Positions 3,206 through 59,513 of a DNA stretch of 64,000 nucleotides are shown piece by piece (the stretch's first letter is position 1; each line of letters starts with the position of its first letter). Under the pieces are notes generated by a model. That model did not search any database. It was not told the DNA's origin and saw only the letters and a program-made list of their open reading frames with translations. Position numbers and translations under genes: made by a program. Origin of the DNA: Schistocephalus solidus (Eukaryota; Platyhelminthes; Cestoda; Diphyllobothriidea; Diphyllobothriidae); the NCBI GenBank assembly GCA_017591395.1, contig WEDG01005322.1:47501-111500 (forward strand), in the 5' to 3' direction.

Positions 3206-3333
3206 TTTTTAACATTTGGTTCAAATAAATAGATAAATTAGAATAACGTGGCGATCAATGTACTGCAAGCAACCCAGCTCAGTCTTGCTTAAAGCCGTGC
3301 AGACTGCACCAAATGAGGCTGCCGAGGCAAAAA

Positions 3334-3683
3334 GGGCAATTTCAGTCTCCCTTGTCTTTGCCGACAGTGTTCATCTACCTATGACACTAACCGCTGTGAT
3401 GCTGCTGACAGGGTTCGAGAGTGAGCCCCAAAACAGGACAGGACGAGTGAGTCCCGTTAGTGGTCGGTGAGCATTCATCAACGGATGCCAATATTATCGG
3501 TCTAAACCGACAAGAAAACGAACCCTTGAGGCAGTGGATTAAAGCGTTTAACTTATAATCAACAGGTGGCGGGTTCGAGCCTCGGGTGGTGCACAACCTG
3601 GGGTTGGGTATGACTGGCTGAAGACGGCTAATGATTCAGAAATGGCCATTCCAGTCTCCGATGTCTTTTTCGGCAATGTTCAT
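3334..3683 (+). mobile_element. hammerhead SINE copy, one monomer flanked by ribozyme remnants
   Basis: The copy begins inside a ribozyme remnant (CAGTCTCCC at 3343-3351), runs through the body (GTGAGCCCC, GACGAGTGAGTCC), then the tRNA-like head (anticodon-arm and B-box region about 3535-3585), and ends just past a second ribozyme copy. The distance between the two predicted cleavage points is 309 nt, the same as the spacing in the tandem arrays. This supports descent from a tandem or circular template. Confidence 0.75.
3606..3658 (+). ncRNA. hammerhead ribozyme motif in SINE
   Basis: The core is CTGAAGA (3618-3624) and GAAA (3639-3642). Helix I is a perfect 6-bp GACTGG/CCAGTC pairing. Helix III is minimal (A-T, T-A closing GGCC). 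The predicted cleavage is after T3650. Helix II is decayed (GGCT facing ATTC), so this copy is probably inactive. Confidence 0.55.
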
Positions 3684-10049: not shown

Positions 10050-10299
10050 GTTTGCCTCTCAAACCGGCGGTTCATGCAAACCACCCTGTTGACTTTTTTC
10101 ATTACGTTTTCGTGTTATCGCTGTCGTTATCGTTATCGATGTCGTTTCTCGTTTTTTCCTGTGTTTTTTTGTTTTATTTACTTGGTGTTGTAACTCGTTG
10201 TATTTCCTCACCGCCCCCTGCCTCTACACCGCCATTTTCCTTCACTGTCCGTCTCCTGTTCCTAATGTCGATGCGAATACGTGGGTCAATCGAGTGCAG
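10050..10299 (+). other. intron between netrin LE1 and LE2 exons
   Basis: This 250-bp intron runs from gtttgc to gtgcag, phase 1. It is pyrimidine-rich, with a degenerate tgtcgttatcg repeat near 10110-10150. Confidence 0.75.
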
Positions 10300-20800: not shown

Positions 20801-21210
20801 AAGCCCAAAAATAATGATAAATTCGATTGCATTCTCTGTTAAAATGGATAAATTTTTGGTAGCTTTTATTTTCTGACGATGAGCTCGGGCAAGGGATTAA
20901 AACTTCAACAAAATTTGACTTCCTAGCTATCTCCTTCATTCTCAATCGTTTCTTGGGACACGATCTTAATTCCCCGCAGATATTTCTCATCAGTAGACGA
21001 AGGCAGACCTGTGTTGGTCATTGTATTTCTGAATTTTTGAAAGAGGACCGAGTATAGGGGAATAAATTTTCGGGATTATTCTCGTCAACAGTTCAGTATT
21101 ATATGAATGACTTGTTGAATCACGACCGAAGGCACACGTTTAATGAGCCTATGCACGTCTTTATTGACAAAGAGACTTATCTGACAACCCTTGGAAGCAG
21201 ATGAGCAATG
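14860..21210. other. intron interior, mostly featureless
   Basis: No coding domain was recognised on either strand. A GC-rich block with G-runs lies at about 15940-16480 and could be a retroelement end. The rest is AT-rich. Confidence 0.35.
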
Positions 21211-21212
21211 TG

Positions 21213-21600
21213 GACAAAGACAAGGGAGACTGGAATAGTCATTTCTGATTTATTAGCCGTCATCGGCCAGCCATACTTAACCCCAGGTTGTGCCACCCCG
21301 AGATTCGCACCCACGACCTGTTGCTCAGAAGTCCAACGCTCTAACTATTGAGCAACGGGATCGTTGCCTTGCCAGTGTAGATCGGGAATATTGACTTGCA
21401 TTCGTTGATGAACGCTCACCGATCGTGAAGAGGAGCTCACTCGTCCCGTTCTGCCGTATAACTCATTCTCGAGCGCCGCCAGCAGCCACAAAGCGGCTAG
21501 TAGTAAAAGAGGCAGATTATACATGCTGACAAAGGCAAGGGAGACCGGAATGACCATTTCTGGCTTAGTAGCCATCATCAGCCAGTTATACCCAGTTTTC
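21213..21600 (-). mobile_element. hammerhead SINE, about 1.25 monomers in tandem
   Basis: On the minus strand the copy contains two ribozyme motifs whose cleavage points are 315 nt apart, with a full monomer (body plus diverged tRNA-like head, B-box region near 21305-21325) between them. Confidence 0.8.
21537..21593 (-). ncRNA. hammerhead ribozyme motif in SINE
   Basis: The minus strand reads CTGATGA, then TGGCTACTAAGCCA, then GAAA. Helix II is fully paired here, five base pairs including T-A at the position where most copies have a C-A mismatch. Helix I is CTGG against CCGG plus one A-T pair. A weaker second motif (CCGATGA) lies at 21222-21281. Confidence 0.55.
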
Positions 21601-23301: not shown

Positions 23302-24270
23302 GCTACGCAAAAATTGATCACTACCATTAATGAAGGTGGTAAAGGACTTAAAATTCCACAGATGAAGGGACTCAATAGGTGACCGTTAAATTGCTAGGCT
23401 CTTAAAGAAGATAATGAACGTCAATTGAAACCCCTCTTTGGATAAGGCCTCGATAAACACTCATTAACCAAAGAATAGGACTTGTGTTATCGAAGCCAAT
23501 TTTATCAGATAAAAATAAACAATTTGGAGTCGCTATATCTTCCAAAGCAGGACAAAAGAATTAGGAACACCCATATAAGTAATAAAGGTGACCCAGCATA
23601 TAATGTCAGGAGGGGTAAGTAGTTCCGTATCTTAACGTAAACTGCAGCCCTACTTTTAATCCTAACGCCACAGTTAACACTAACCATAACCCTAAACTTA
23701 ACCCTAACCCGAAACTATAACCCTAAACGTAACTGTAACCTTATCTTAGGCACAACTCTAATTTCACTGGAGTTTGGCACAATGCCAACTGAACTGCTGG
23801 TGGTTCTTATTCTCCTCCTATCTACGGGGCCATATAAGCAATCCCACCCAAGTAATTTTTACATAATGCCTCACGTGCTGCTAGATTTGAAAATCTCAAA
23901 AATCAATGCTATGTTTGCCGAAGTTGATAGTACTCACCTTGAATTACTTACAGAAACTGAACCAATTCGGTCTCTATGAATGCCTCCAAATTCGCTCAAA
24001 GAAAATGCAGACATATTTATAAAGCTACGTACCGTTCCGTCTGCCATGCGGCGTTGAATGCATGCCTCCGGTGATAGAGACTGCTTTTACCCTTTACCAC
24101 GTTTCTTCGTCACAATTGCTGACCACTATTTCGGTCCCAACGGGGCAGGTGGCATGGCTTACACGTGAATTTGTTTGCATTGAAAAAAGGCCTGCGAAAC
24201 CCCCTACCTTGCTCTTTTTCACATACTCACCACGTTCAAACGATAGGACAAAGTTAGCACATTGGCGGAT
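23302..24270. other. intron interior with a CCCTAA-like tract
   Basis: Apart from the degenerate CCCTAA tract at 23640-23760, no feature was recognised. Confidence 0.4.
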
Positions 24271-24276
24271 GGATGC

Positions 24277-24640
24277 TTCACCGATCGGCTACGGGACTCA
24301 CTCGCCCCGTCCTGGTTTGGGGCTCACTCTAAAGCCCCACAACGAGCCACACAGAGGTTGGCAAAGACAAGGGAGACTGGAATGGCCATCGATTACGGAA
24401 CTCACTCGTCCGATATGTGAAACATCCATCCGCTAACGTTGACGATCCCGATATAAACTGGCAAGACAACGAGCCCGTGGGTAGAGCGTTGGACTTCTAA
24501 TCAACAGGTTGCGAGTTCGAGTCTCAGGTGGTGCACCTCCTGGGGTTGAGTATGGCTGGCCGATGACGGCTAATAAGCCAGAAATGGTTATTCCAGTCTG
24601 CCTTGTCTTTGCCGGCAACGTTCATCTGCCAAAGTTAATA
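24277..24640. mobile_element. hammerhead SINE, inverted composite
   Basis: Positions 24277-24410 are minus-strand body and ribozyme 3' pieces. Positions 24446-24640 are a plus-strand copy with a clear tRNA-Arg(TCT)-like head: GGGTAGAGCGTTGGACTTCT from 24480, then AGGTTGCGAGTTCGAGTC. The ribozyme and tail follow. Confidence 0.8.
24549..24602 (+). ncRNA. hammerhead ribozyme motif, one core substitution
   Basis: GGCTGG pairs with CCAGTC (helix I). The core reads CCGATGA instead of CTGATGA, helix II is GGCT/AGCC with an AATA loop, and GAAA follows. The U4-to-C core change would be expected to disable cleavage. Confidence 0.5.
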
Positions 24641-33662: not shown

Positions 33663-33687
33663 TGATACATATATGCGCAGAAAAACA

Positions 33688-33862
33688 TTACCGACAAATA
33701 CATGGAGACCAGAATAGCCATTTCTAGGCTTATTAACCGTCATCAGCCAGTCATACCCAATCTCAGGCTTGGATCGCCTGAGATTCAAACCAAGGACCTT
33801 TGATCAACCTGGTATTTTGGGGCTCAATCTCGAGCCCCGCCAGCAACCGCTCTCCGGCAAAT
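33688..33862 (-). mobile_element. hammerhead SINE copy, truncated
   Basis: This minus-strand copy holds the ribozyme region (GACTGG, CTGATGA, GGTT/AGCC with wobble, GAAA) and decayed head. It is joined to the body end GGGGCTCAATCTCGAGCCCC. Confidence 0.7.
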
Positions 33863-34175: not shown

Positions 34176-35041
34176 ACGGATAATATTCACCCATCCCGCA
34201 ACTATACCCAGGACGTTCCTCTTCCTGCGTCCTATTTAGGAAGCCCTCTAAGAAACCCTTAATAATTGCTGGCGACTAATTGTCCTTCATTCTGCCCACC
34301 GAGCTCCTCTCACTCTCACTGAAATCTTTTCAAACTGTTGAAATGAAACAACCTAGTCAACTTTGCAATTTCACTCCGGTTTTCCACATAACTGTCAGCC
34401 CTTGATGAAAGTTTACCAAGAGCGCATATTTTTCAAACTGACCTCAGCTGAATCTTCGCGAAACTTTTAAGGATTTATTGTTATCTAGCAGTGATAAATT
34501 TTGCTGTTTGTGACTAGATGCAGTCTTCCTGCGACGTGTTCATGAAGCGGGCATTCAGATAATGAACAACTAATTATCAAATGATGGTTCCTCAAGACAC
34601 CAGGACAGCGGCCTATTCTACGCAAGCAAGCATCTCATAGGCTCGCTGCATTCCAAAACACTATCTTCAAAGTTAGGTGACATGGCAATCAGAGGCATCA
34701 ATGAGTCGTAGTGTTAGCCACATAGATGCTGTTTCTTCTACTTTATCCTTCCAGAAACAAAACACCACCAGCCGGTATCTCGGGAACTAACCTACTTAAT
34801 CCGAGCATGTAGGTGCAGTAATCCCTCATCATTTCGCAACTAGCTTTTCGCACACTTCGCACACTTCGCATGTTTTCTCCTAGAATACTTTCTGTATGTT
34901 TGCGGTGCTTTATAGGATTTTTTATATATTTATTATTTTCCTACGCATATATAAGGTACAGTGGAGAAGAGCATATGAAGAATTTATAAGCCCACTTAGA
35001 ACGATCGCTAAGTTTTACATCACTGATCGGTGAGCGCTCAA

Positions 35042-35067
35042 CTATATATATATATATATATATATAT
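35042..35067. repeat. (TA)n microsatellite
   Basis: This TA tract of about 26 bp runs directly into the SINE array. Confidence 0.9.
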
Positions 35068-35200
35068 GGTAGTAGGGCGCTCACCGATCAGTTACAGGAC
35101 TCACTCGTCCCGTTGTGCCTTGGGGCTAACTCTCAAGCCCCGCCAGCAGCCGTAAGGCAGCTTAGTGTATAGGCAGAATAACATGACCGACAAAAGACAA

Positions 35201-35255
35201 GGGAGACTGGAATGGCCATTTCTGGCTTATTAGCCGTCATCAGCCAGCCATACCC
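35201..35255 (-). ncRNA. hammerhead ribozyme, array monomer 1
   Basis: The minus strand has GGCTGG (helix I), CTGATGA, GGCTAATAAGCC (helix II, flanked by a C-A mismatch), GAAA, ATGGCCAT (minimal self-complementary helix III), T (cleavage), CCAGTC (helix I), and a distal GGG/CCC pairing across a TAT/T internal loop. All core nucleotides are present. Confidence 0.7.
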
Positions 35256-35509
35256 AACCCCAGGCGCTGCGGCGCCCGAGCCTCGAACTCGCGACCTTGT
35301 TGGGCAGAAGTCCAACGCTCTACCCACTGCGCCACGAGCTCGTTGTCTTGCCGGTTTCGATCGGGAATATTAACAATGGTAGTAGGGCGCTCACCGATCA
35401 GTTACAGGACTCACTCGTCCCGTTGTGCCTTGGGGCTAACTCTCAAGCCCCGCCAGCAGCCGTAAGGCAGCGCAGTGTATAGGCAGAATAACATGACCGA
35501 CAAAGACAA

Positions 35510-35564
35510 GGGAGACTGGAATGGCCATTTCTGGCTTATTAGCCGTCATCAGCCAGCCATACCC
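35510..35564 (-). ncRNA. hammerhead ribozyme, array monomer 2
   Basis: It is identical in core and helices to monomer 1. The cleavage points of monomers 1 and 2 are 309 nt apart. Confidence 0.7.
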
Positions 35565-35814
35565 CAAACCCAGGCGCTGCGGCGCCCGAGCCTCGAACTC
35601 GCGACCTTGTTGGGCAGAAGTCCAACGCTCTACCCACTGCGCCACGAGCTCGTTGTCTTGCCGGTTTCGATCGGGAATATTAACAATGGTAGTAGGGCGC
35701 TCACCGATCGAGTTACAGGACTCCTCGTCCCGTTGTGCGCGGGGCTAACTCTCAAGCCCCGCCAGCAGCCGTAAAGGCAGCGTGCAGGCAGAATAACATG
35801 ACCGACAAAGACAA

Positions 35815-35872
35815 GGGAGACTGGAATGGCCATTTCTGGCTTATTAGCCGTCTTCAGCCAGTCATGCCCAAT
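35815..35872 (-). ncRNA. hammerhead ribozyme, array monomer 3
   Basis: The core is CTGAAGA and GAAA. Helix I is GACTGG with CCAGTC, six Watson-Crick pairs where the other two monomers have one G-T pair. This is a compatible change that supports the fold. Confidence 0.7.
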
Positions 35873-35882
35873 CCCAAGTGTG

Positions 35883-36460
35883 GAAGAAAGAAGGCTCGTC
35901 GGAAAATCGAGGTTTACTCGTGAATTTTCACGCTGGTTACACCAACCCGTCGTCAGACGAAATGAGAAGTGAGAGTTGGGATTGTCACGCTGGAGGGTTT
36001 AGGGGCACAGAGGTTACATCGACAGACTGACACCATGGGGGGTTTGGGGGGCCGTGAATCCTGTTACGATAGCTGTCGCATTTTAAGGGAGGTGCTGAGT
36101 TGTGATAGCAAGTCAAGTGGCGGGAGATGCAGAGCCAGCGAGGTTACACTTGGCTGGGCACAGATAAGCAGTTGTTGATTTTAAGGTGGGCGCAAGTCAG
36201 TGGACCGTGCACGCAGACCTTCGTAGTTCGCATCCAGATCGACGTGGCGGTTGATACTGTTTGTGCCGGAGTGCCAAGCTTCGAGGAATTCGCGTGCCTG
36301 TTTGGTGCTAGCCATGGCGACCACTTCCGTTCCCTTCCAATTAAAGCGGTGGTCGCAATCAACGGCGTGCACAAACACAAGAGACAAGGGATCGCGTCGG
36401 CGGATGGCCAGTTTGTGTTCATTTATGCGGGTCCCGAGTCGTCGGCCTGTATGGCCTACG
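35883..36460. repeat. left inverted terminal repeat of the PLE
   Basis: It starts GAAGAAAGAAGGCTCGTCGG and matches the complement of 38334-38912 up to GGCCTACG, with a small number of substitutions. Confidence 0.9.
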
Positions 36461-36507: not shown

Positions 36508-36510
36508 TTA

Positions 36511-38016
36511 ATGCTCTTTGAGTACGAGATCTTTAACACGGGATAGTGCTGCCCGCAGGGAGGACGCTGGCTTGTGAGCGATGCAGATACCAAATCGGTC
36601 TAGTTGTCGGGCGATCGTTTCCGAAATGCCCGGCATGTATGGCAATGAAACGAATTTCCTCGGTACTACTTCTCCATTAGTGCTCTGATCTTGTGGTTGC
36701 CTGTGACTTCGGAGACAGTTTTTCACGAAGCTCATCGGATATCCGTTAGATCGGAATAGTTGGTATAAATAGGCAAGTTCTTTTTTAAGTAGATACTCGC
36801 TGTTACAGTACCGGAAGGCACGGTGAAAAAAAGCTATAACGCAGCCTTGTTTGTGGGCAGCAGGATGATTGCTCCCATAGTTCAGGATTATTTCGTCATT
36901 TGAGTCTTTTCTGTGGACGCTGGTTGCGAGCTTGCCATCACTCAATCTTTGCACCGTGACGTCGAGAAACGGGAGGATGTCGCCTGTTGCTCCTTCGCGG
37001 GTGAATTGTATAGCAGGGAAGACGCCATTAAGACTTTCATGCAGCCGTTCCCCTTCGCAGGTGTTAATGACCACGAAGGTATCATCAACGTAGCGAAGCC
37101 ACATTTTCGGCCTGAGGTTTTGAATCACAGCTTCTTCTAGACGTTGGAGGAATAGCTCGGCAAGTAGCCCCGATATCGGTGAACCCATTGGAGTACCCTT
37201 GACCTGTTGGTAATGCTTACCGTCGAATTGACAATAATTCTTAAGGCAGAGCCAGAGCATTTCTAAAACGTGCTGCGTTGGAATGTCTATAGGCGTTTCT
37301 TCTAGACGTCGAGCTACGCTCTCAATTGCCAGGTTATGTGGTATTGAGGAAAAAAGGGCAACCACATCAAACGATAGAATGCATTCATCAGGACTTACAT
37401 CAAGGCCTTGAATTCTTTGAAGAAAAGCATGCGAGTTGCTGATGCTGATCTGTGAACCATTACTAAGGTGCTTTAAGCGTTTGTATAACCACTTGGCAAG
37501 GTTATAAGTAGGCAATCCAATGAGTGGCACTATGATCCTCAATGGTGCGTCCGCTTTGTGAATCTTTGGAAGGCCATAGGCACGTGCGATGCGCGGATCA
37601 TTGAGAGTTAGAAATGTAGAGTCCGCGGGGCTTATAAGTTTCATTCTAGTGAGCTCATTCACCTTCTTCTTTACAGATGCAGCCTGTTTTTTCGTTGGAT
37701 CCCCAGCAACGGGGATGTAGGCCTCCCTGTCATGAAAAGCTTGATTGGCCTTATTGACATAGTCAATCTTGTCCATGATGACGGTAGTACCACCTTTGTC
37801 AGCAGCTACAACGACGATACTGTCGTCCGACCTAAGGGAGCGTAATCCCTTATCTTCTTCCATTGACAAGGTTTTCTGAGGTTTTATTTTTCGGAGGAGG
37901 CCAGTAGCACAGCTGCGTATATCAGCACGCATGTCCTCAGGGATGGATGAGGTTAGTAGGAGGGATTCAATACCGGCTAAGAAGCTCGTAGGTGCAGCAT
38001 CGGTATGACTAAACAT
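36511..38016 (-). CDS. Penelope-like reverse transcriptase, 502 codons
   Basis: This long open frame holds the PLE reverse-transcriptase core: ADKGG (residues 72-76), YGLPKIHK (147-154), motif A FDVVALFSSIP (216-226), motif B GTPMGSP (274-280), motif C YVDD (309-312), FLDV (350-353), HRK and SNHP near 368-385. YVDD and the DKG and PKIHK blocks separate PLEs from LINE and LTR RTs. The annotated start methionine is not the real N-terminus. Upstream codons in another frame (38016-38334) carry the PLE N-terminal region ending NLSKRSLTP, so there is a 1-nt frameshift near 38020-38040. The frame ends at a TAA (36508-36510) that separates it from the nuclease. Confidence 0.92.
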
Positions 38017-38334
38017 TATGCCTTTCGACAGCAGGCTTGTTTCGCCGGGGTGAGACTCCTTTTCGAAAGGTTCACAACTCTTGTAGACATAGTACTATCG
38101 TTAATGGGACGGAGAGGAGCTTGGAGCTTGTCTTGAAGATCGGCTCGCTTCTTCATACGAGCATCCTTGGTGGTGGAATTTATGCGCTGCAGTACGTTAT
38201 CAAAAATATCTTCAGGTAAGGATAAAACGCACCGGGACCTAAGGTCAGAGATAATTGCTTCAAATCGACGAAGACAATTGTGGACGTCAGATATAATCGC
38301 ACTGAGAACACGAAATCCGTATTTGCGAGCAAGC
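38017..38334 (-). pseudogene. PLE N-terminal region, frameshifted from the RT
   Basis: The minus-strand frame reads LARKYGF, DVHNCLRRFEAIISDLRSRC, a lysine/arginine-rich helix and VVNLSKRSLTPAK. This is the conserved start of PLE polyproteins, preceding the RT. The codons LLSKGIMFSHT follow only in the next frame. The 5' end is lost where the inverted GIY-YIG copy begins. Confidence 0.75.
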
Positions 38335-38912
38335 GTAGGCCATACAGGCCGACGACTCGGGACCCGCATAAATGAACACAAACTGGCCATCCGCCGACGC
38401 GATCCCTTGTCTCTCGTGTTTGCGCACGCCGTTGATTGCGGCCACCGCTTCAATTGGAAGGGAACGGAAGTGGTCGCCATGGCTAGCACCAAACAGGCAC
38501 GCGAATTCCTCGAAGCTTGGCACTCCGGCACAAACAGTATCAACCGCCACGTCGATCTGGTGCGCATTACGAAGGTCTGCGTGCACGGTCCATTGACTTG
38601 CGCCCACCTTAAAATCAACAACTGCTTATCTGTGCCCAGCCAAGTGTAACCTCGCTGGCTCTGCATCTCCCGCCACTTGACTTGCTATCATAACTCTAGC
38701 ACCCCTCCCCTTACATGCGACAGCTATCGTAACAGGATTCACGGCCCCCCAAAACCCCATGGCGTCAGTCTGTCGATGTAACCTCTGTGCCCCTAAACCC
38801 TCCAGCGTGAAAATCCCAACTCTCACTTCTCATTTCGTCTGACGACGGGTTGGTGTAACCAGCTTGAAAATTCACGAGTAAACCTCGATTTTACGACGAG
38901 CCTTCTTTCTTC
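38334..38912. repeat. right inverted terminal repeat of the PLE
   Basis: This plus-strand segment holds a second, 5'-truncated GIY-YIG frame (VGHTGRRLGTRINEHKLAIR and onward) and the same untranslated tail. The copy is 5'-truncated at the same point where the left arm stops. Confidence 0.9.
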
Positions 38913-43739: not shown

Positions 43740-45368
43740 TTTGAAATTATCCTGCAGCGGATTTAGTCTATCTCTACTTGCAAATAGGAGCTGCTCTACG
43801 GTCAGTTCTCGGGTATACACTCGATTTGATAAACAAGTTATCTTTATTTGTATTGCCGAACTGTAAAAAGCATCAGATATGAACCAAGTCGTAAGTGTGC
43901 AGTCAATAACACCTTATTTTTAGACGAAAGTTTTTGGTGCATTTGTGATGTTAGCCAGTTGACCATATAGTTTCAATTTATCATATGAGGCCTATTTTCC
44001 GCCCTAGCCTGCTCTCGACCACCAGAATTTATTTTTGACTATCTTTCCTATCAGTGCTACGCACTTGCAGACGAGACAGTTGTCGGACGTAAGATCATCT
44101 GACACCAACACTGTCGTTTTTTTCATTTATTTGGCAGCGCTTTGTCCATGAAAAGTACACATATATACATCTAGGTCTTTCACAGGTTTCGGGTTCCTCC
44201 TTCTCCTCCTGCTTCTTGACTTTTCTTCATTCAAGGTGATTTTTGTTTCAGTATGGTTCATTTTTCGAGATTTTTATCTCCAGACTGACCTTTTGAAATT
44301 ACACATGAGCCGCCCCTCACCGACCTAATTAGAACTCTCAGTTTCTTAAACAACACCCGGGATTGGACTGGCATAAAGTCACAATTAGCCAGGGAGAACG
44401 AAGTTATATGGTCCCCGGAATCATGTCTTTATTCCTTGGAGTTTTCGAACTCTTACTGGAATCCAGTGTCCAACATGAAAGTGGCAGCAACGACACAAAC
44501 AACAGTTACAGGGGTACGGGGCCAGACCGGATGGGTTCGAGTAAAAGTTCGAAGGCTCAAGTGACTAAAGAAATTATTCCGCACCCGAAGTGTCCTCTTA
44601 TTCCCTATTTATACATACGCCTGATATGCGAAAATTCACTGCACTATAATCGCCAATTCAAACGAGCTTAGAGATCTCATATAATAAAGGTAGTTTTTTG
44701 GCCACGTTATCTTCCCCAACCGTGTTATCCCTCAGAATGCGTAGACGGTCAATATCAACTTTCCGCATATTTTGGATACGTACCGTTTAGTGTTTCTCAG
44801 CCTCAACACACCAAAGCACCTTTGGGTAGAAGTAAAAAAAGATGTGTTAGACAAACGTTGATCTGCCGCTTTGCTGATGCATGCATTATTCATCCTACCG
44901 TCTATTATTCGCCTACGCTGCCCTCAGTAGGTAAACCAAATAAGGTGTCTGTATAACTGCACGAACGAAAAGATCGGCTTCACTTCCCATCTCTTCACCG
45001 TCCCACGCATCGGTCGACTGTCAACACAGTTCTTCCGACTAGCATTGATTTTGGGTGCATTACCCGAAATACTCCGTATATTTATGACATGCGTAAATTC
45101 GACAATAGTTAAGAAATCATGCCGAATTGCCGTAGCATAACACAAGTCAGTATTTGCAGCATGTGCGGCATGTGCAGCAGTACGGCCCGAGGCGGGGGGG
45201 GGGCTAAAAGCCAGTGCAAATTACAACCCATAGTATGCGGGCCCAAAAGACCGATAACGGATAAAAAGTACTCCCTCGATTATCGTGGGACTTACACTAC
45301 GAGACACGCAAAATTCACATTTCAGCACAGAGATATGCATTGCAGCTTACAAACCTGTAAAATCATAT
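43740..45368. other. intron interior without recognised features
   Basis: An open frame of 102 codons at 44363-44671 has no recognisable domain or splice context. The remainder is AT-rich. Confidence 0.35.
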
Positions 45369-45906
45369 ATTCCTGTTTGAATAAATACCCTACTGCAGTA
45401 GCAGAGAATGAGAGGTGGCGAAGAACTGATGAACTTCGGTTCGATAATGTATATATCAAACAATCTGCTAGACCCAGTGTTTGGACTGTCTGCGCCGTGA
45501 TTGAGCGCATGTTTGTCTTTTGAATTCCAGCTGTTGTAAGAGTTATGGTTGGCTGAATGAACGCAAAATAAGCCTCAAACAGACGGCATCAATCTACCCA
45601 TATATACTGTCGTCCCTCATCTTTGCAACTAAAATTTGGCCGACTTCCGCCATGTACTTGGTTGCCTGTTCGTGACCTTTGCCACCCATACGGAGCTTGT
45701 TTGCTTCGGGAAGCCAATAGATCGGTGTGCACCTATTCCTGTTTGTATAAATACCCAATCTCCTGTAACAGAGAATGACAGGTGGCGAGGCCCTGATCAA
45801 ATTCGGTTCGATGAAGTGCTTATGACCAATCTGCTAGATCCAGTGTGTTGACTGCCTGCACCGTGCTTGAGCGCATGTTTGTGTTTCCAATTCCAGCTGA
45901 TAGTCA

Positions 45907-45966
45907 GGGTTATGGTTGGCTGAATGAAGTCAAAATTAGACCGAAACAGATTGTGTCATTCTACCA
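45907..45966 (+). ncRNA. hammerhead-like motif in satellite (GTC/GAC type)
   Basis: It holds GGTTGG, CTGAATGA (one extra nucleotide at core position 7), GTC-AAAATTA-GAC (helix II), C, GAAA, and ACAGATTGT (minimal helix III). The base at the cleavage position is G here, so this monomer is probably not cleavable. Confidence 0.4.
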
Positions 45967-48084
45967 TATTTTTTGTCGTCTCTCCTCTCTGCAATTAAAA
46001 CTTGACCAACTTCAGCCTGATAATTGGTTCCCTGTTCGTGACCTTTTCCACCCACACGGACATTGTTTGCTTCGGGAAGCCAAAAGATCGGTGTGTACCT
46101 ATTCCTGTTTTATAAATACCCGATCTCCTGTAACAGAGAATGACAGGTAGTGAGGCACTGATGAACTTAGGATTCATGAAGTGCTTATAAACCATCTGCT
46201 AGACCCAATGTGTGGGTTGTCTGCGATCTATTTGAACGTATGTTTGTGTTTCCAGTTCTAGCTGGTAGTCAGGGCTACGATAGGCTGAATGAAGGCAGAT
46301 TAATCCCGAAACAGACTATTTAAATGTACCATATTTTTTGTGGTCTCTCCTCTCTGCAATTAAAACTTGTCCGATTTTGGCCTGATAATTGAATGACTGT
46401 TCATGTCCTTTCCCACCCACACGGAGCTTGTTTGCTTCGGGAAGCCAATAGCTCGGTGTGCGCCTATTCCTGATTGATTAAATACCTGATCTGCTGTGAC
46501 AGAGAATGACCGGTAGCGAGGCACTGATCAACTTAGAATCGACGGAGTGCTTATAAACCATCTCCTAGAACAGTGTGTGTACTGACTGCACTGAACTCAA
46601 GTGCATGTTTGTGTTTCCATTCCCAGCTGGTAGTCAGGGTAATGATCGGCTCAATAAAGTCAGAATTCGACCGAAACAGAGTGTGTCATTCAACCATATA
46701 TTCTGTCATCAATCCTTTCTGTAATAATAACTTGATCAATATCGGCCGTGTACTTGGTTGCCTGTTCGTGATCTTTGCCACCCGTACGGAGCTTGTTTGC
46801 TTCGGAGAGCCAATATATCCTGTTTGAATACATACCCGATCTCCTGTAACAGAGAACTACATGTGTTGTGGCACCGATGAAACTCGGTTCGAAAGAGTGC
46901 TTATGACCCATCTGGTAGACCCAAGGTGTGGACTTCCTGCACTGTACTCAAGTGCATGTTTGTGTTTCCGGTCCCAGCTAGTAGTCAGTGTTATGATTTG
47001 CGGAAAGAAGGCAGAATAAGTCCGAAACAGACTGTTTCAATCTACCATATTTTCTGTCGTGTATCCTGTCTATAATTATACCTTAAACCACTTCGGCCTG
47101 GTAATTGGTTGCCTCTTAATGACCTCTCCCACCCATACGGAGCTTGTTTGCTTCGGGAAGTCACTAGATCGGTGTGCGCCTATTCCTGTTTGAATAAATA
47201 TCCGATCTGCTCTGACAGAATGACAGATAGCGAGGCACTTACGAACTTCGGTTCGATGGAGTGCTTATGACAGATCTACTAGAGCCAGTGTGTGGAATGT
47301 CTGCGCTCTACGTGAGCGTATGTTTGTGTTTCCAGTTCCACTGGGTAGTCAGGGTTACGATTGGCCAAATGATGTCAGAAATAGAACGAAATATATTGTT
47401 TCATTCTACCATATTTTCTGTCATCTCTCCTCACTGCCATTATAACTTGACCGACTTCGGCATGGTTATTGGTTGCCTGTTTGTAACCTTTGCCACCAAT
47501 ACGGTGCTTATTTGCTTCGGGAATCCAATAGATTGGTTTGCGCCTATTCCTGAGTGAATAAATACCCGATCTGCAGTGACAGAAAATGACATATGGCGAG
47601 GCACCGATGAACGTCGGTTCGTTTTAGTGCTTATGACCCATCTGCTAGACCCAGTGTGTGGACTTACTGCGCTATACTCAAACGCATGTTTGTGTTTCCG
47701 GTCCCAGCTGGTTGTCAGTGTTATGATTGGCTGCAAGTAGTCAGAATGAGCCCGAAAAAAACTGTATCAATCTACCGATATTTTCTGTCGTGTTACTCTC
47801 TACGATTATAACTTGACCGACTTCGGCCTGGTAATTGGTTGCCTGTTCAAGACCTTTGCCACCCATACGGAGCTTGTTTGTTTCGGGAAGCCACTAGATC
47901 GGTGTGCGCCTATTCCTGATTGAATAAATACCCGATCTGCTGTGACAGAAAATGACACATGGCGAGGCACCGATGAACGTCGGTTCGTTTTAGTGCTTAT
48001 GACCCATCTGCTAGACCCACTGTGTGGACTTACTGCGCTGTACTCGAACGCATGTTTGTGTTTCCGGTCCCAGCTAGTAGTCAG

Positions 48085-48143
48085 TGTTATGATTGGCTGC
48101 AAGAAGGCAGAATAAGCCCGAAACAGGCTGTATCAATCTTCCC
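48085..48143 (+). ncRNA. hammerhead-like motif in satellite (GGC/GCC type)
   Basis: It holds GATTGG, a decayed core CTGCAAGA, GGC-AGAATAA-GCC (helix II), C, GAAA, ACAGGCTGT (helix III), A (permitted cleavage base) and TCAATC, which pairs with GATTGG over six positions. A TT/TTAT-type internal loop follows, with a partial distal C-rich/G-rich pairing. Confidence 0.4.
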
Positions 48144-49320
48144 AGATTATCTGTCGTGTTACTCTCTACGATTATAACTTGACCGACTTCGACCGTGTAC
48201 TGGGTTGCCTGTTCGTGACCTTTGCCCCCCCCCCATACGGAACTTGTTTGCTTCGGGAAGGCAATAGATCGGTGTGCGCCTATTCCTGTTTGAAAAAATA
48301 CCTGATCTGCTGTGACAGAGAATGACCGGTAGAGACGCACTGATGAACTTTGTTTCGATGGATTGCTTATGAACCATCTCCTTGATCCACGGTGTGACCT
48401 GCCTGCGCTGTACTCAAGCGCATGTTTGTGTTTCCGTTCCCAGCTGGTAATCAATGTTACGATTAGCTGAAGAAAGTCAGAATTAGACCGAAAATTTGTT
48501 TGTCATTCTACCATATTTTCTGGCGTCTGTCCTCTCTGCAATTATATTTTGGCCGACTTCGGACTTGTACTTGGTTGTGTGTTCGGGACCTTTGCCACCC
48601 ATACGGAGCTTGTTTGCCTCGGGAAGCCAATAGATCAGTGTGCGCCTATTCCTGTTTGATTAACTATATGGTCTCCTGTGACAGAGAATTACAGGTAGCG
48701 AGGCACTGATGAACTTCGGTTCGACTGAGTGTTTATGACCCATCTGCTAGACACATTTTGTGGACTGTCTTAGATATACTCGATCGTATGATTGTGTTTC
48801 TAGTTCAAGCTGTTAGTCAGTGTTATGACTGGCTGCAAGAAGGCAGAATAAGCCTGAAAAATACTGTATCAATCTACCCATATTTTCTGTCGTGTTTCCT
48901 CTCTACAATTTTAACTTGACAGACTTCGGCCTTGTACTTGGTTGCCTGTTCGTGAACTTTGCCACCCATACGGACCTTGTTTGCTTCGGGAAGCCAATAG
49001 ATTGGTTTGCGCCTATTCCTGAGTGAATAAATACCCGATCTGCTGTGACAGAGAATGATATGTGGCAAGGCGCCGATGAACCTCGGTTAGATAGAGTGCT
49101 TATGAACCATCTGCTAGACCCAGTGTGTGGAGTAACTGTGCTGTACTCCAGCGCATGTTTGTGTTTCTGGTCCCATATAGTAGTCAGTGTTATGATTGGT
49201 TGAAAGAAGGCAGAATAAGCCCAAAACAGACTGTATAAATCTACCCATATTTTCTGTCGTGTATCCTGTCTATAAGTATACCTTCAATTATAACTTGACC
49301 GACTTCGGCCTGTTTATTCG

Positions 49321-49912: not shown

Positions 49913-51124
49913 GTGAGTCCGCTCACAATAGCAGCCTGGAATGTTCGTTCCCTTTTAGACAATCAGAGGAGCAACCGGTCGGAATGGAGGATGGCGCTAG
50001 TCGCTCGGGAACTGGCGCGCTACAAGGTGGACAATGCTGCTCTTAGCGAGACCCGATTCTCTGAGCAGGTTCAGCTGGAGGAGGTGGGTGCTGGCTACAC
50101 CTTCTTCTGGAGCGGCCGGCCAAAGGCAGAGTGACGCGATGCTGGTGTTGCATTTGCCATCCGTAACGACATTGTTGGAAGTCTGCCCTGTCTGCCGCAG
50201 GGTATCAATGATCGCCTAATGAGCCTCCGCCTGCCTCTTCGGGGAGACCAGTTCGCCACCATCATCAGCGCCTACGCTCCCCCAATTACGAGCTCTGATG
50301 CGGCGAAGGACAAATTATACGAGGACCTGCACGCCTTTCTGGCGACTGTGCCGAAAGAGGACAAGTTAATTGTCCTTGGTGACTTCAATGCCTGCGTTGG
50401 GATGGACCACGCTGCCTGGCAGGGAGTTCTGGGTCCCCACGGTCTCGGTAGCTGTAGCGATAACGGCCTTCTTCTTCTTCTGCGCACGTGTGCGGAACAC
50501 CGTCTCCTGCTGACCAACACCTTCTTCCGCCTTCCGATGCGGGAGAAGGCCACGTGGATGCACCATCGGTCGCGGCGCTGGCATCTGCTGGACTATGTTC
50601 TCGTCCGGAGGCGAGATCGATAGGATGTGCTGGTAACCAAGGCGATCCGCGATGCCGATGGTTGGACGAATCACCGCCTCGTCATCTCCCAGATGGGGCT
50701 CCGACTACAACCCAGACGAAGGCCCCAAGGTAAGAGGCCGCCAGGTAAGTTAAATACTCTTTTGTTTAATTTGCCTGCTCACTGTTTTGATTTCAGCAAC
50801 CAAATAACCGGGAAACTGGAGGACCTGCATGCTCCAGATGATAACGCTACCGTGGAGACACGATGGTGTCAACTGCGAAATGTCATCCAGTCCACCGCCC
50901 TCGATGTCCTCGGACGCGCACGCCGTCGACACCAGGACTGGTTTGACGACATTGACGCCGACATAAGCAACTTACTCGCGGAGAAGAATGGACTATACAA
51001 AGCCTACATGGATCTTCGGACTGACACCACCAAAGCAGCCTTCTTCAGATGGCGGCGCCTTGTACAGCAACGGCTGCGGGAGATGCAGGATGCCTGGATG
51101 ATCCGAAAGGCTGAGGAAATCTAG
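49913..51124 (+). pseudogene. LINE AP endonuclease and linker, broken
   Basis: One reading frame holds an AP-type endonuclease: IAAWNVRSLLD at the start, [26 protein letters not shown] near 50380 and LLDYVL near 50590. It continues into a helical, arginine-rich linker. In-frame TGA (50132-50134) and TAG (50621-50623 and 51122-51124) interrupt it. The first two look like single C-to-T changes. A 1-nt frame change right after 51124 leads to the RT frame. The domain nicks target DNA to prime reverse transcription. No separate ORF1 was recognised. Confidence 0.85.
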
Positions 51125-51146
51125 GGAGTATGCGGATCGCAATGAA

Positions 51147-52400
51147 ATGAAAAACGTTTTCAAAGCCATCAAGGCCATCTGCGGCCCGTGTATCAAGGGG
51201 ACCGCACCGCTGCTTAGCTCTGACGGCACAACACTGCTGACAGGGAAATCGAAAATTCTTAATCGCTGGGCCGAGCACTTCAAAAGTGTCCTTAATTGCT
51301 CATCAGCCATCTCCGATGCTGCCATTGCCCAGCTCCCTCAAGTGGACACGAACAATGACCTGGATCTGCCGCCTTCCGTACCAGAAACCATTCGGGCCGT
51401 GCAGCAGATTTCCAGCGGTAAAGCACCGGGATCCGACGCAATCCCACCGGAAGTCTACAAGCAAAGTGGGCCCCGGCTGATGGCAGAACTCACAACACAC
51501 TTCCAGGAGATGTGGCGCCAAGGACAAGTTCCTCAGGATTTCAAAGACGCGATCATAGTCCATCTCTACAAACGAAAGGGGAACCGGCAAATCTGTGATA
51601 ATCACAGAGGCATCTCGTTGCTCAACATCGCTGGGAAGATCTTCGCCCGTATCCTTCTCAATCGTCTTAACGGTCACCTAGGGCAGGGCCTGTTCCCGGA
51701 AAGCCAATGTGGCTTCCGCCGACACCGCGGAACAACCGATATGATCTTTGTCGCCCGCCAGCTACAAGAGAAGTGTCAGGAGATGCGAACTCACCTATGC
51801 ACGACCTTCTTGGATCTGACGAAAGCCTTTGAAATAGTGAAACGCGACGGAATGTGGAAAGTCACGCAGAAATTCGGCTGTCCTGAGCGGTTCACGCACA
51901 TGGTGCGTCAGCTTCATGACGGGATGACGGCGCGCGTCACTTACAACAGGACGGTATCCGAAGCCTTCGCAGTGACCAACGGAGTGAAGCAGGGCTGCGT
52001 ATTGGCCCCCACCCTATTCAGTCTCATGTTATCTGCTATGCTGATGGACGCCTACCGTGATGAGCAGCCTGGTATCCGCATCGCCAACAGAACTGACGGG
52101 TACCTTCTCAACAGTCGGCGTATGCAGACTTCAACGCTCGTGTCTACTGGTAGAGTCCATGACTTGCTCTTCGCGGACTACTGCACTCTTAACACGGTGA
52201 CGGAGGAGCACAAGCAAAGGAGTATGGACCTCTTCGCCGAAGGCTGCGCCAATTTTGGATTAACAATCAGTACAGCCAAAACGGTTGTCATGCACCAGCC
52301 ACCACCCAGCGCGGAATACAATGCTCTCCGAATCAATGTCAACGGTGCTCAACTAAAAAACGTGGAAACCTTCGCTGTCACGCAACACGAGAATCAATGA
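51147..52400 (+). pseudogene. LINE reverse transcriptase, catalytic site damaged
   Basis: This open stretch of 417 codons carries the RT core of a non-LTR element: ISSGKAPGSDAIPPEVYK, IVHLYKRKGNR, HRGISLLNIAGKIFARILLN, motif A FLDLTKAFE, motif B NGVKQGCVLAPTLFS and motif C. Motif C reads FADY at about 52170-52181 where FADD is required, so the second catalytic aspartate is lost. The frame ends near 52400, where roughly 8-10 codons of the LGST-type region are missing and the frame shifts. The exact LINE clade is not assigned. Confidence 0.9.
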
Positions 52401-52409
52401 CGAGGTTGC

Positions 52410-53403
52410 CCAACGGATCTTTAAAGCTAGTCAGGCCTTCGGCCGACTGCAGGCCTCCGTATGGAATCGCCACTGTATTCACCTGAACACCAAACTGAAG
52501 ATGTACAAGGCCGTCGTCTTGACGACACTCCTTTACGGAGCGGAGACCTGGACCGTCTACTCGAACCAAGCCAGGAAGCTGAATCACTTCCATCTCAGCT
52601 GCCTACACAGAATACTGAAGCTGAGATGGGAAGACAGGATACCGGACATGGAAGTCCTGGAGCGGACCGGAATCCTCAGCATCAGCGCCATGCTGAGGCA
52701 AGTGCAAATGCGATGGTACGGCCACCTGGTAAGAATGGACGACGAGCGACTACCCAAACAACTTTTCTACGGAGATGTCGCTACGGGTGCTCGCCGACAG
52801 GGAGGTCAAAAACGACACTATAAGGACACTTTGAAGAAATCACTGAAGCAACTGCATATCAACCCGGTGACCTCGGAGGACTTCGCCCAGGATAGACCGG
52901 CCTGGAGAAGATCCGTGAAGACTTGTTCAGCAATCTATGAGGCCAACCGGATCGCCGCCGCCAAGGCCAAAAGAGCGACACGAAAATCACCAGTGCCCCG
53001 GACCAACATCGTCGATGCCCAGGCTCTGCCAACATGCCCGCGCTGTCAACGCATCTTCTGCGCGAGAATCGGCCTGGTTGGACATCCTCGGACGCAACGC
53101 ACTAACAATCCGACAATTCCAATTTCTGCGTCAAATTCTGCCAACCCTCCTTCAGACTCCCCCACCCTCAATTCCCGGCATCAATTCCATTACTCCCACC
53201 ATCATAGAGACCACAGCCCTCTACTCATCGCCTGTTACCCCCACCACCGCAACCACCACCGCCTTCGCCTTCACTACCTCCACCACCACCACCACCATCA
53301 GCGATGGGGAATCTCTCCTAAGCTGAACTCAATGCGACCGCACATTCACCTCACGCATCGGCCTGGTCGGTCACTTGTGAATACATCGTACAGAGACCGG
53401 TGA
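52410..53403 (+). pseudogene. LINE RT C-terminal domain with first zinc finger
   Basis: It follows the RT in another frame: [52 protein letters not shown] (the usual C-terminal domain of AP-endonuclease LINEs), a basic region, and [17 protein letters not shown], a C2H2-like finger with its last histidine position altered. A frame change near 53080-53130 leads to a Thr/Pro-rich linker and further fingers. Confidence 0.8.
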
Positions 53404-54667: not shown

Positions 54668-55014
54668 AATTCGTTGCCTGTTCGTGACCATTCCTACCCA
54701 CACGGTCCTTGATTGCATCGGGAAGCCAATAGATCTGTGTGCGCCTATTCCTGTTTGAATAAATACCCGATCTGCTGTGACAGAGAATGACATGTCGCGA
54801 GGCACCGATGAACCTCGGTTAGATGGAGTGCTTATGACCCATCTGCTAGACCCAGTGTGTGGACATCCTGCGCTGTACTCAAACGCATGTTTGTATTTCC
54901 GGTCCCAGCTAGTAGTCAGTGATATGATTGGCTGAATGAAGGCAGATTAAGCCCGAAACCGACTATGTAAATCGACCATATTTTCTGTCGTCTCTCCTCT
55001 CTCCAAAATAACAT
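54668..55014 (+). repeat. continuation of the 365-bp satellite after the LINE
   Basis: It resumes at TTGCCTGTTCGTGACC and contains the full landmark and a hammerhead-like motif near 54920-54980 (GATTGG, CTGAATGA, GGC-AGATTAA-GCC, CGAAA). It ends at a SINE. Confidence 0.88.
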
Positions 55015-55015
55015 G

Positions 55016-55207
55016 TCCGACAAAGACATGGGAGACTGGAATTACCACTTCTGCCTTATTAGCTGTAAGCAGCCAGTCATACTTAACCCCGGGTTTTGTG
55101 GCACCTGAGGTTTAAACTGGTGACCTGGTGGTTATAAGTCCTACGCTCTACCCCACTGTGGCACGAGGTCATTTTCTTGCCAATTTCGATCGGAAATATC
55201 AACTATG
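55016..55207 (-). mobile_element. hammerhead SINE copy, minus strand
   Basis: It runs from the tail through a decayed ribozyme (CTGCTTA core) and the tRNA-like head to the body end. A partial inverted pair with the following plus-strand array is formed. Confidence 0.75.
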
Positions 55208-55220
55208 GTACTTATTTGTG

Positions 55221-55893
55221 GTAGATAGTGAGCCCCAAAGCACAACGGGTCGAATGAATCCTGTAACCGTTCGGTGAGCGCCTACTACCATTGTCAATAT
55301 TCTTGATCAAAACCGGCAAGATAACTAGGCTGGTTAGAGTTTGGACTTCTAGCCAACAGGTTGCGAGTTTGAGGTTCTTGTGCCGCAACACCTGGGGTTG
55401 TGTATGGCTGGCTGATGACGACTAATAAGGCAGAAATAACCATTCCAGTCTCCCTTGTCTTTGTCGGTTTTATCATTCTGCCTATATAACTAGCTGCTCT
55501 GTGGCTGTTGTTGGGGCTCTAGAGTTAACCCCAAGGCACAACGGGACGAGTGAGTCCTGTAACCGATCGGTGAGTGCCAAACTACCATTGTTAATATTCC
55601 CGCTCGAAACCGGCAAGACAACGAGCTCGTGGCGCAGTGGGTAGAGCGTTGGACTTCTGTCCAACAGGTCGCGAGTTCGAGCCTCGGGCACCGCAGCGCC
55701 TGGGGTTGGGTATGGCCGGCTGATGACGGCTAATAAGCCAGAAATGGTCATTCCAATCTCCCCTGTCTGTTTGTTCAGGTTATACTGCCTACATCCTTAA
55801 CCACTGTACGCCTGCTGGCGGGGTTCGTGGATAAGCCCAAAGGCATAACGGGATGAATGAGTCCATTAACCGATCGGTAGGCACTTATTAGCA
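55221..55893 (+). mobile_element. head-to-tail hammerhead SINE array, about 2.2 monomers
   Basis: Body, head, ribozyme, body, head, ribozyme, body in order. The second head is the best tRNA-like copy: GAGCTCGTGGCGCAGTGGGT from 55623, then TTGGACTTCTGTCC and GTCGCGAGTTCGAGCC. It resembles tRNA-Arg(TCT) in the A box, anticodon arm and B box. The cleavage points are 308 nt apart. Confidence 0.88.
55708..55762 (+). ncRNA. hammerhead ribozyme motif in SINE array
   Basis: It holds CTGATGA (55720-55726), GGCTAATAAGCC, GAAA (55741-55744) and ATGGTCAT. Helix I is weakened (GGCCGG against CCAATC), so core and helices II and III are intact but helix I is decayed. A second, weaker motif lies at 55399-55453. 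Confidence 0.6.
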
Positions 55894-55899
55894 TAGCTA

Positions 55900-57620
55900 T
55901 GAATACATATCAAAGCTTACTAAACTAATTTAAATTTTGTAATCTTCCCTGCCCTCTTATAAACGCTACCTATCCTCCTATAATCTGCACTGTACAGTCT
56001 TAAATATACACAGGAAAATAATGAAAATGTGAAAACTCCCATGAAATATCTAAAGTCCGTAGAACCTGCCCTAAAAGAAAACCCGCGAAGTATCAATTTC
56101 GCAAAAAGCATGTCGCAAAGGGGCAGGGGGGACTGTAGATTGAGAGTAGGGATCATAAGGTATAGTTTTGAATGTGTAAGTGCCTTGACGATCATTTCGA
56201 GAAGAGGAAAGGGGCCATCTGTGGGGTGGGGGCATATGTTCAACCAGCAACGACTACGCAGGCCATCTAACAAAGATCTGTATAACCGCACGAAAAAGAA
56301 GATCGACCATATTCTCTCTCTCTCTCTCTTTTTATTTCTCTGTCAATCGGTCGCTGAGACGGTTTCTTACTGCCTACCTGTAAAGACAAATAGAAGAGTC
56401 CAATAAACTAATGATTCCTCTGTCTACAGTTTGGTATCTTTCTCTCTCTCTCTCTCTTCACTCTTTCCTGCACCAGTGGACTGAATGATGTTGTGTGCAT
56501 TACTTGATGTGGCATAAAAGATTCCATCCACTTGTGCCACGAGTGCATGCGATAATCGTTAACAAATCATTCAGTCTTATCGCAGCCCGACCAAAGCATA
56601 CCACAAACCGGTGTTTGCGCATTTTGGTAACGTGCAGCAAATACCACTTTATGGGAGGGGGGCTTGCTGTAAACCAGTCCAAACTACATATTCTAGTATA
56701 GGAGTCTAAAAGGCAGATTACACAAACAGCATGCGATGCATAAGTCGCCGTCTCTGAAATCTACAACACAATGACAGCAAAAACAATCTAAATAATTCCG
56801 TTGCATTGTTTATTTTTTCTTTCTTGAGATATCTGTGAGGAGAACTTTGTGAATTAATGCACGCTCGTTCAGGTGCTGGTTACTTTGTGTCATCCTTCTC
56901 TTTTACAAAATTTACCACATTTTCTTTCTCGCTTTTATCAGAGGGTCTTCTTGGTCGCGGCTTAATGGATAAGTTTTCAAGTTCTTCAATCTTCCATTTC
57001 CAGTATTAGAGTGTTGTTCTAGGTGGTGGTGCGCGATTGAAACCTCGTTGAAAATTGTGCAGGCTTCGGCCTAACTTTGGTGCACTGCCGCACAGCTAAT
57101 TATGAACACTTTATTGGAAATAGGAAATTCACTCTCGCCATCTGCCTCCCTCATGTCGTAATAAATTAACCTTACTTATCTGCAAATAAAAAGGACAATA
57201 CAGAGCATCGCCAAGAGATAAAGAGTATCAATCAGCGAATCCAATTAAGTACACCCAGCAATAAGTGAAATCAGCCTACCCATATATAGAGACGGAGACT
57301 GACAGCATAAGTATTTGCTAAAAATCCAGACACGTGTTTCGCCGATATACCGCCGCTGCATGCCGCAGCTGCGTTCCCTGCATGCTCTCTGGTAGATACT
57401 CCATTTTTGAAATTGCCGCTTCTTAATTTTCTCAGAAATTAATCACCAACTGGTGTAAATCAGTATGAACTAAGGTTACTAGGCGCAGACCAAAGTTTGA
57501 TAGGAATATTTGAGCCGAAGTCTATCTGCCACAATGAACTAATCACGTAATATTAATTAAACTGCTTACATACAGTCAGTAATATATACTGAGTTTACAC
57601 GATACATCAGTTTGACAGCA
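55900..57620. other. intron interior with CT microsatellites
   Basis: CT-rich tracts lie at 56309-56330 and 56437-56458. Nothing else was recognised. Confidence 0.35.
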
Positions 57621-59196: not shown

Positions 59197-59306
59197 GTGA
59201 GTTTATTTGCTTATTACTTATTTACTTGCTATACATGACAGCAATAAAAAGCGTAGTTGCGGCGCTTGTGTGCTTTCTAAGGTACATAAAGGTAATAATA
59301 GTGTGG

Positions 59307-59513
59307 GGCTCAGCTATCTGTTTACGGAACATGAATGTCCCGTTGTGTCTTGGAGCTCACTTTAGAGCCCTCACAGGCAGCTGCGTAGCAACTTATGGTA
59401 TATAGGATGATAAGGTAGAATCTCGGATGATCCACACCTGGGATTGATTATGACTAGCTGATGACGGCTAATGAGCCAGAAATCGCCATTCCGGTTTCCC
59501 TTGTCTTTGTCAT
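59307..59513. mobile_element. hammerhead SINE fragments, inverted pair
   Basis: Positions 59307-59395 are minus-strand body. Positions 59432-59513 are a plus-strand ribozyme region (CTGATGA, GGCTAATGAGCC, GAAA) with tail CCCTTGTCTTTGTC. This pair sits in the short intron after the NTR exon. Confidence 0.65.

What the first reader, a model, noticed from the sequence alone, without database searches (positions are those of the whole stretch)
35068..35879. tRNA-headed SINE carrying a hammerhead ribozyme, amplified head to tail
Seen: three near-identical monomers of about 310 bp in tandem, two with a complete tRNA-Arg(TCT)-like head. All have a motif with the CTGANGA and GAAA cores, helix I GGCTGG or GACTGG pairing with CCAGTC, helix II GGCT/AGCC, a self-complementary minimal helix III (ATGGCCAT) and a distal GGG/CCC pairing across a small internal loop. 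Known: Schistosoma SM-alpha elements and Penelope-like elements carry type I hammerheads with short helix III. Inference: tandem transcripts of this element could self-cleave into monomers of about 309 nt. I am not aware of this tapeworm-type family, with both a tRNA head and a ribozyme, being described.
Basis: partly seen in the sequence, partly recalled or inferred. Interest (0 to 1): 0.88.

Follow-up and report, generated by a model that had tools for sequence, protein, structure and literature searches.

The report
Hammerhead-like tapeworm SINE, tandemly repeated
A genome that is likely a tapeworm's carries a short tRNA-headed, likely mobile repeat copied head to tail, and each copy holds a hammerhead-like sequence that, paired with another copy, is predicted to fold into a double hammerhead and would then likely cut the RNA into single units, although one conserved base pair of the ribozyme is missing and no cutting has been tested.

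Summary
Window 35066-35880 carries about 2.7 head-to-tail units of a tRNA-Arg(TCT)-headed SINE-like element (sense strand minus), with 309 and 305 nt between candidate cleavage sites. Each unit has CTGANGA...GAAA, a 6-bp helix I, a 4-bp helix II and a palindromic helix III (ATGGCCAT). It is a repeat family: 19 segments in the window, and translated copies in Schistocephalus solidus.

The ribozyme reading is only partly supported. Rfam reports no hammerhead. The 10.1-11.1 pair is C.A in 12 of 13 copies. The 13 copies show no covariation for the hammerhead, and the array's single copies fold better as a plain hairpin. Yet two isolated array modules have a double hammerhead as predicted minimum-energy fold, and in the whole array RNA one complete site is predicted between units 1 and 3. 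A 2019 review names a palindromic stem III and tandem motifs as what such folds need; both are met.

A tRNA-derived SINE with a hammerhead is already known (Schistosoma Sm-alpha). New, as far as my limited searches show, is a tapeworm family with this core change. Best explanation: a retrotransposed multi-unit RNA that likely self-cleaves as a double hammerhead (0.45). Main rival: a structured SINE with a dead or fortuitous motif.

The parts
35066..35880 (-). head-to-tail array, about 2.7 units of the SINE-like element
35262..35341 (-). tRNA-Arg(TCT)-like head of unit m1 (A box TGGCGCAGTGG, 0 mismatches)
   Evidence: (RF00005 19.5 bits at 35284-35341)
35572..35651 (-). tRNA-Arg(TCT)-like head of unit m2
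   Evidence: (RF00005 19.5 bits at 35594-35651)
35201..35255 (-). hammerhead-like module of m1; predicted cleavage between 35211 and 35210
35510..35564 (-). hammerhead-like module of m2; predicted cleavage between 35520 and 35519
35815..35869 (-). hammerhead-like module of m3 (CTGAAGA); predicted cleavage between 35825 and 35824; its tRNA head is missing
55004..55914 (.). second multi-unit locus: 55224-55914 (+, 2.29 units, about 83% identical) next to an inverted 0.67 unit 55004-55213 (-); no border repeat over 5 bp
21197..21594 (-). dispersed copy of 1.27 units with a hammerhead-like module near both ends; the module at 21536-21596 has U-A at 10.1-11.1
3313..3680 (+). dispersed copy of 1.20 units; partial module at the 5' end, whole module near the 3' end
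24259..24630 (+). copy with a 5' inverted piece; 8-bp repeat CAAAGTTA at 24249 and 24630, 0-2 bp from the alignment ends
59294..59511 (+). copy with a 5' inverted piece; 7-bp repeat TTTCTAA at 59274 (13 bp outside) and 59513 (1 bp outside)
33670..33862 (-). about one unit in two segments with an internal deletion; module core intact

Best explanation
This is a tRNA-headed SINE-like element, likely a retroelement of a diphyllobothriidean tapeworm, whose multi-unit RNA likely cuts itself into 305-309-nt units through a hammerhead-like motif that is predicted to form only when two units pair. Shown: the repeat, its tRNA-like head, the core and palindrome, copies of 1.2 to 2.7 units, copies made of an inverted plus a direct piece, and the predicted fold. 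Inferred: RNA polymerase III starts at the internal boxes and reads through several units (one TTTT run in the 815-bp array); two modules pair through ATGGCCAT and exchange helix I strands; cleavage falls at AUU/CCAGUC; a LINE or Penelope reverse transcriptase copies the RNA back. Untested: cleavage itself, ligation into circles, the partner enzyme.
For: Core, helices and palindrome together are rare by chance. Two isolated modules cofold with helix I 6+6, helix II 4+4 and helix III 8 of 8 pairs as minimum for m1, m2 and m3 (3 of 13 copies) and for m1 with m2 and m2 with m3. For the 55-nt core the dimer minimum is -44.3, the double hammerhead -42.5, two monomers -36.2 kcal/mol. In the 812-nt array RNA one complete site is predicted between m1 and m3: m1's 5' helix I strand with m3's 3' strand at 0.85-0.89, the palindromes at 0.89-0.99, helix II of m1 at 0.81-0.89. 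A palindromic stem III plus tandem motifs are named as the needs of double hammerheads in eukaryotes (PMC6466107 passages); [quoted passage not shown] Core intact in 9 of 13 modules (8 by pattern, plus c33700). The hammerhead structure pairs 86.5% of cells against 34-58% when slid, though it was drawn from these sequences. Unit size fits animal retrozymes, 150-450 bp (PMC7229834 section 13). The unit RNA is unusually structured (z -3.96, 0 of 100 shuffles). In S. solidus, P0121 and P0122 each encode two modules in a row.
Against: Rfam: no hammerhead. 10.1-11.1 is C.A in 12 of 13 window copies, and none of 12 translated S. solidus modules allows G at 10.1 (by eye); this is the most conserved pair after 15.1-16.1, and U.U is the best tolerated mismatch (PMC3088659 section 8). 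No pair changes on both sides, and 454 of 500 shuffles pair as well or better. RNAalifold prefers a plain hairpin with 93.3% of cells paired and 2 pairs changed on both sides, also within its shuffles. The monomer hammerhead lies 7 kcal/mol above the minimum. The energy gained by dimerising is not special: 161 of 200 shuffles gain as much or more. Eight of 13 copies show neither helix I nor III in the dimer fold; c21536 shows only helix I, c3602 helices I and III. In the 812-nt array RNA neighbouring modules do not pair (probability 0.001 or less), the second helix I between m3 and m1 does not form, and m2 is a plain hairpin. The predicted dimer also pairs A14 with U17. Core columns are not clearly more conserved (permutation 0.17 within the module, 0.054 over the element). 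Of 19 segments none begins or ends at the cleavage site, bar the artificial split of the array at 35824/35825 where the query itself starts.
Confidence: 0.45

Rival explanations
1. An ordinary tRNA-derived SINE with a conserved imperfect hairpin after the head; the hammerhead likeness is fortuitous or a dead relic, and nothing is cut.
For: Rfam silent; C.A at 10.1-11.1 in 12 of 13; a hairpin is the monomer minimum of the array modules and the RNAalifold consensus, with 2 pairs changed on both sides against none for the hammerhead, though neither exceeds its shuffles.
Against: Flush geometry of three helices around an exact core plus a palindromic helix III is unlikely by chance; animal repeats of this size and layout are known to carry type I hammerheads (PMC7229834 section 13).
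Confidence: 0.4
2. The array is a SINE-derived satellite made by DNA-level events (unequal exchange, slippage); the ribozyme, active or not, plays no part in it. Not exclusive with the others.
For: Units are about 95% identical, as recent local duplication would give; SINE-derived tandem repeats are known (PMC10702118, abstract start in the listing). No copy ends at the cleavage site. No border repeat over 5 bp around this array or around 55004-55914.
Against: Multi-unit spans recur at separate loci with different borders; S. solidus has two-module copies too.
Confidence: 0.3
3. A fully fledged retrozyme: monomers are ligated to circular RNAs and reverse transcribed by rolling circle, which makes the tandem copies.
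For: Size, tandem layout, strong self-pairing (64-65% of bases paired in a predicted circle), a Penelope-type element in the same window.
Against: GC of the units is 57-58% while animal retrozymes are described as below 50%; circles not testable here; core variant.
Confidence: 0.2

Closest known systems
Sm-alpha (Schistosoma mansoni) and Sj-alpha (S. japonicum) SINE-like elements
   Same: flatworm, SINE-like, high copy, hammerhead motif; Sm-alpha is tRNA-derived (PMC2770079 passages) and its type I motif is active in vitro (PMC8490949 section 11)
   Different: Sm-alpha-like copies derive from tRNA-Gln(TTG), here tRNA-Arg(TCT)-like. The Sm-alpha motif is found by a search with Rfam's hammerhead, this one is not. 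C.A at 10.1-11.1. A tRNA head of Sj-alpha is not stated in what I read. Sequence homology was not tested.
Metazoan non-LTR retrozymes with type I hammerheads
   Same: 150-450-bp tandem repeats, weak helix III in many, self-paired RNA (PMC7229834 section 13; PMC7761336 section 8)
   Different: has a tRNA-like head with A box; GC 57% instead of below 50%; circular RNA unknown
Minimal hammerhead variants of Penelope-like elements that cleave as dimers (Lunse et al., as cited in PMC6466107 passages)
   Same: almost no helix III, palindrome, tandem modules
   Different: here in a SINE-like element; the original paper is not held
S. mansoni W-elements W25.2/W36.2
   Same: flatworm repeats whose hammerheads have an extremely short stem III; 3 of 5 candidates tested were active in vitro (PMC8490949 passages and section 11)
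   Different: W36.2 is Sm-alpha itself; the word tRNA does not occur in that paper; candidates with a changed core were inactive

Membership tests
Type I hammerhead ribozyme | CUGANGA and GAAA cores | tested here: met
   array 3 of 3; 9 of 13 window modules
Type I hammerhead ribozyme | A15.1-U16.1 and NUH cleavage triplet | tested here: met
   AUU in the array (by eye); columns 42-49 a standard pair in 13 of 13, A-U in 12
Type I hammerhead ribozyme | 10.1-11.1 pair closing helix II | tested here: not met
   C.A in 12 of 13, U-A in 1
Type I hammerhead ribozyme | match to the Rfam covariance model | tested here: not met
   a type III control is reported at 33.3 bits, itself below gathering
Type I hammerhead ribozyme | helices supported by covariation | tested here: inconclusive
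   0 of 16 pairs with changes on both sides; the 13 copies are few and alike, so the test is weak
Type I hammerhead ribozyme | self-cleavage | not testable with these tools
   needs a transcription assay
Double (dimeric) hammerhead | palindromic stem III and tandem motifs | tested here: met
   array 3 of 3; palindrome in 4 of 13 modules
Double (dimeric) hammerhead | dimer fold predicted | tested here: inconclusive
   full as minimum for 3 of 13 isolated modules; one of two sites, between m1 and m3, in the array RNA; energy gain not above shuffles
Metazoan retrozyme | 150-450-bp tandem repeat | tested here: met
   305-309 nt
Metazoan retrozyme | GC below 50% | tested here: not met
   57-58%
Metazoan retrozyme | abundant circular RNA | not testable with these tools
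   no RNA data
tRNA-derived SINE | tRNA-like head with A and B boxes | tested here: met
   A box 0 mismatches in m1 and m2; B box degenerate, 3 of 11 off by eye; Rfam tRNA 19.5 bits, below gathering; ARAGORN none
tRNA-derived SINE | dispersed copies with target-site duplications | tested here: inconclusive
   repeats of 8 and 7 bp near the borders of 2 of 12 loci; words of 7, 7 and 9 bp also turn up away from the borders of 3 others
Sm-alpha-like SINE | sequence homology to Sm-alpha | not tested
   no Schistosoma DNA at hand

The most novel reading that the evidence does not exclude
A tapeworm SINE family uses an obligate double hammerhead with a C.A closing pair, inactive in any single copy and switched on only when two units are joined in one RNA, so that cutting and multi-unit retrotransposition depend on each other.
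Probability: 0.25. Interest if true: 0.75.

Novelty: new variant of a known kind. Interest (0 to 1): 0.45.

Why it matters
If it cleaves, hammerhead-bearing tRNA SINEs would extend from flukes to tapeworms, with an active core lacking one of its two most conserved pairs and working only between copies. It would make testable how animal hammerhead repeats become tandem and retrotranspose. If it does not cleave, it is a warning that core-motif scans overcall ribozymes in structured SINEs.

Tried and rejected
Rfam at gathering over the window and at E<=10 on two stretches: no hammerhead. Most of the 27 rows are microRNA families on the (TA)n hairpin around 35018-35099 and are taken as spurious. 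Rfam on one Penelope flank, 35885-36000: nothing. Exact-pattern scans for the module: 0 in genome contigs and 0 in viral contigs. Conservation of core columns: not significant. Target-site duplication for the array: no shared word over 5 bp. One search used the flatworm mitochondrial code without need; the standard list is the one used. A custom covariance model was not built: it would match its own copies by construction.

Full report
What is there. On the minus strand at 35066-35880 lies an array of about 2.7 units. Read 5' to 3' a unit is: tRNA-Arg(TCT)-like head; a 55-nt hammerhead-like module; a run of hairpins; a leader TTGTTAATATTCCCGATCGAAACCGGCAAGACAAC; the next head. The two cleavage-to-cleavage units are 309 and 305 nt and 95.5% identical. 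The array abuts Penelope-related sequence at about 35880 (inferred) and a (TA)n tract at 35043-35067.

Family. BLAST with the unit consensus (E<=1e-4) gives 19 non-redundant segments in 64 kb; the weakest is 65% identical. Of 17 module rows that nhmmer aligned at its inclusion limit (weaker rows of its table are left out), 13 carry the whole motif and went into alignment A1; the four dropped (3316, 7866, 24391, 41546) are partial or remote. Multi-unit copies are 35066-35880 (2.48 + 0.18 units), 55224-55914 (2.29), 21197-21594 (1.27) and 3313-3680 (1.20). Four loci (24259-24630, 59294-59511, 7793-7942, 55004-55914) are an inverted piece next to a direct piece, which looks like the 5' inversions of LINE-type target-primed reverse transcription (mechanism recalled). 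Repeats CAAAGTTA and TTTCTAA lie at or near the borders of two of 12 loci; the other ten have no such word at the border, words of 7, 7 and 9 bp near three of them lie away from the alignment ends, so the 7-bp case is weak. Nine of 19 segments end 21-44 nt after the cleavage site and five at 144-153; the spacer at 38-48 is poorly conserved, so some ends may be where the alignment gives up. None falls on the cleavage site, apart from the split of the array where the query itself begins.

Host. The Penelope ORF 36508-38094 is 83% identical to proteins of Sparganum proliferum and Spirometra erinaceieuropaei (120 of 471 hits listed). Translations of the SINE find only Schistocephalus solidus proteins: 6 of 10 candidates with E<=0.1 and 5 of 16 with E<=1, nine different proteins in all. 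So a diphyllobothriidean tapeworm is likely; the species is not settled. Sparganum and Spirometra genomes hold 1.1-1.2% SINE and about 10% Penelope (PMC8166898 passages).

Is it a hammerhead? For: exact core, flush helices, NUH site AUU, palindromic ATGGCCAT, rarity by chance. Against: Rfam (the type III control is seen, though below gathering), C.A at 10.1-11.1 (PMC3088659 section 8), no covariation, hairpin preferred by single array modules. In S. solidus 12 modules can be read in 8 proteins: the residue whose codon holds 10.1 is T in 8, M in 2, K in 1, A in 1 (by eye), so G10.1 is not possible in any; M would mean U10.1. The variant is therefore a trait of the family, not a local lesion.

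Double hammerhead. Cofolding two isolated modules gives the full double hammerhead as minimum for m1, m2, m3 and for m1-m2 and m2-m3; c3602 keeps helices I and III, c21536 only 5 pairs of helix I, the other eight copies neither. As single modules, helix I forms in cis in c3602, c55027 and c21536 only (3 of 13). The dimerisation energy as such is not unusual (161 of 200 shuffles gain as much or more). In the 812-nt array RNA, cis helix I stays below 0.01 in all three units; one complete site is predicted between m1 and m3 (helix I 0.85-0.89, palindromes 0.89-0.99), the second helix I of that pair does not form, and neighbouring modules do not pair. So the fold that would cut is predicted in the long RNA too, but at one of three sites.

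Known or new. A tRNA-derived SINE with a hammerhead is known in Sm-alpha; Sj-alpha is named as SINE-like with a hammerhead (PMC2770079 passages). Platyhelminths are named among hosts of retrozyme-like repeats (PMC7229834 passages). I searched for hammerhead ribozyme with tapeworm names: the papers listed (20 of 805, 8 of 4,098, 40 of 300) all have 0 occurrences of hammerhead ribozyme, but the lists are capped and the library holds CC-licensed papers only. In one search (15 of 43 listed) hammerhead and cestode meet in PMC10886601, where the one hammerhead is in a reference title, and in papers whose titles concern hammerhead flatworms or sharks and rays. So no cestode report was seen; absence is not proven.

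Verdict. A real SINE-like family with a hammerhead-like module that works like a double hammerhead on paper. It is not filed as a true type I hammerhead, because the closing pair and the Rfam match were tested and not met.

Noticed in passing
window 36508-38094 (-): Penelope-type reverse transcriptase open frame of 528 residues, RVT_1 42.6 bits, 83% identical to Sparganum/Spirometra proteins.
   Followed up: partly
window 35926-35956 (-) and 38839-38869 (+): Both flanks of the Penelope ORF, in opposite orientation, carry CTGACGA...GAAA followed by a minimal AATT helix III and a 5-bp UUCGU/ACGAG helix I (by eye); like the SINE there is a C after CTGANGA. Helix II is poor; Rfam reports nothing for the first flank.
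   Followed up: partly
window 50135-53403 (+): LINE-type frames: endonuclease (Exo_endo_phos 26.3 bits) and reverse transcriptase (RVT_1 102.7 bits); the downstream ORF has zinc-finger-like CPRC repeats by eye, no Pfam hit.
   Followed up: partly
window 45368-49271: Satellite array, period 366, 10.7 copies, 79% matches.
   Followed up: no
window 35018-35099: Inverted SINE fragment across (TA)n makes a strong hairpin that draws likely false microRNA matches.
   Followed up: no
window 9794-10548 (+): Laminin-type EGF domains, likely exons of a laminin- or netrin-like gene.
   Followed up: no
P0121-P0129 (Schistocephalus solidus): Predicted proteins that look like translated SINE copies; some carry domain names in public records that have nothing to do with it. 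P0123 has three modules at short spacing, and P0126-P0129 show a different head peptide before the same module.
   Followed up: partly
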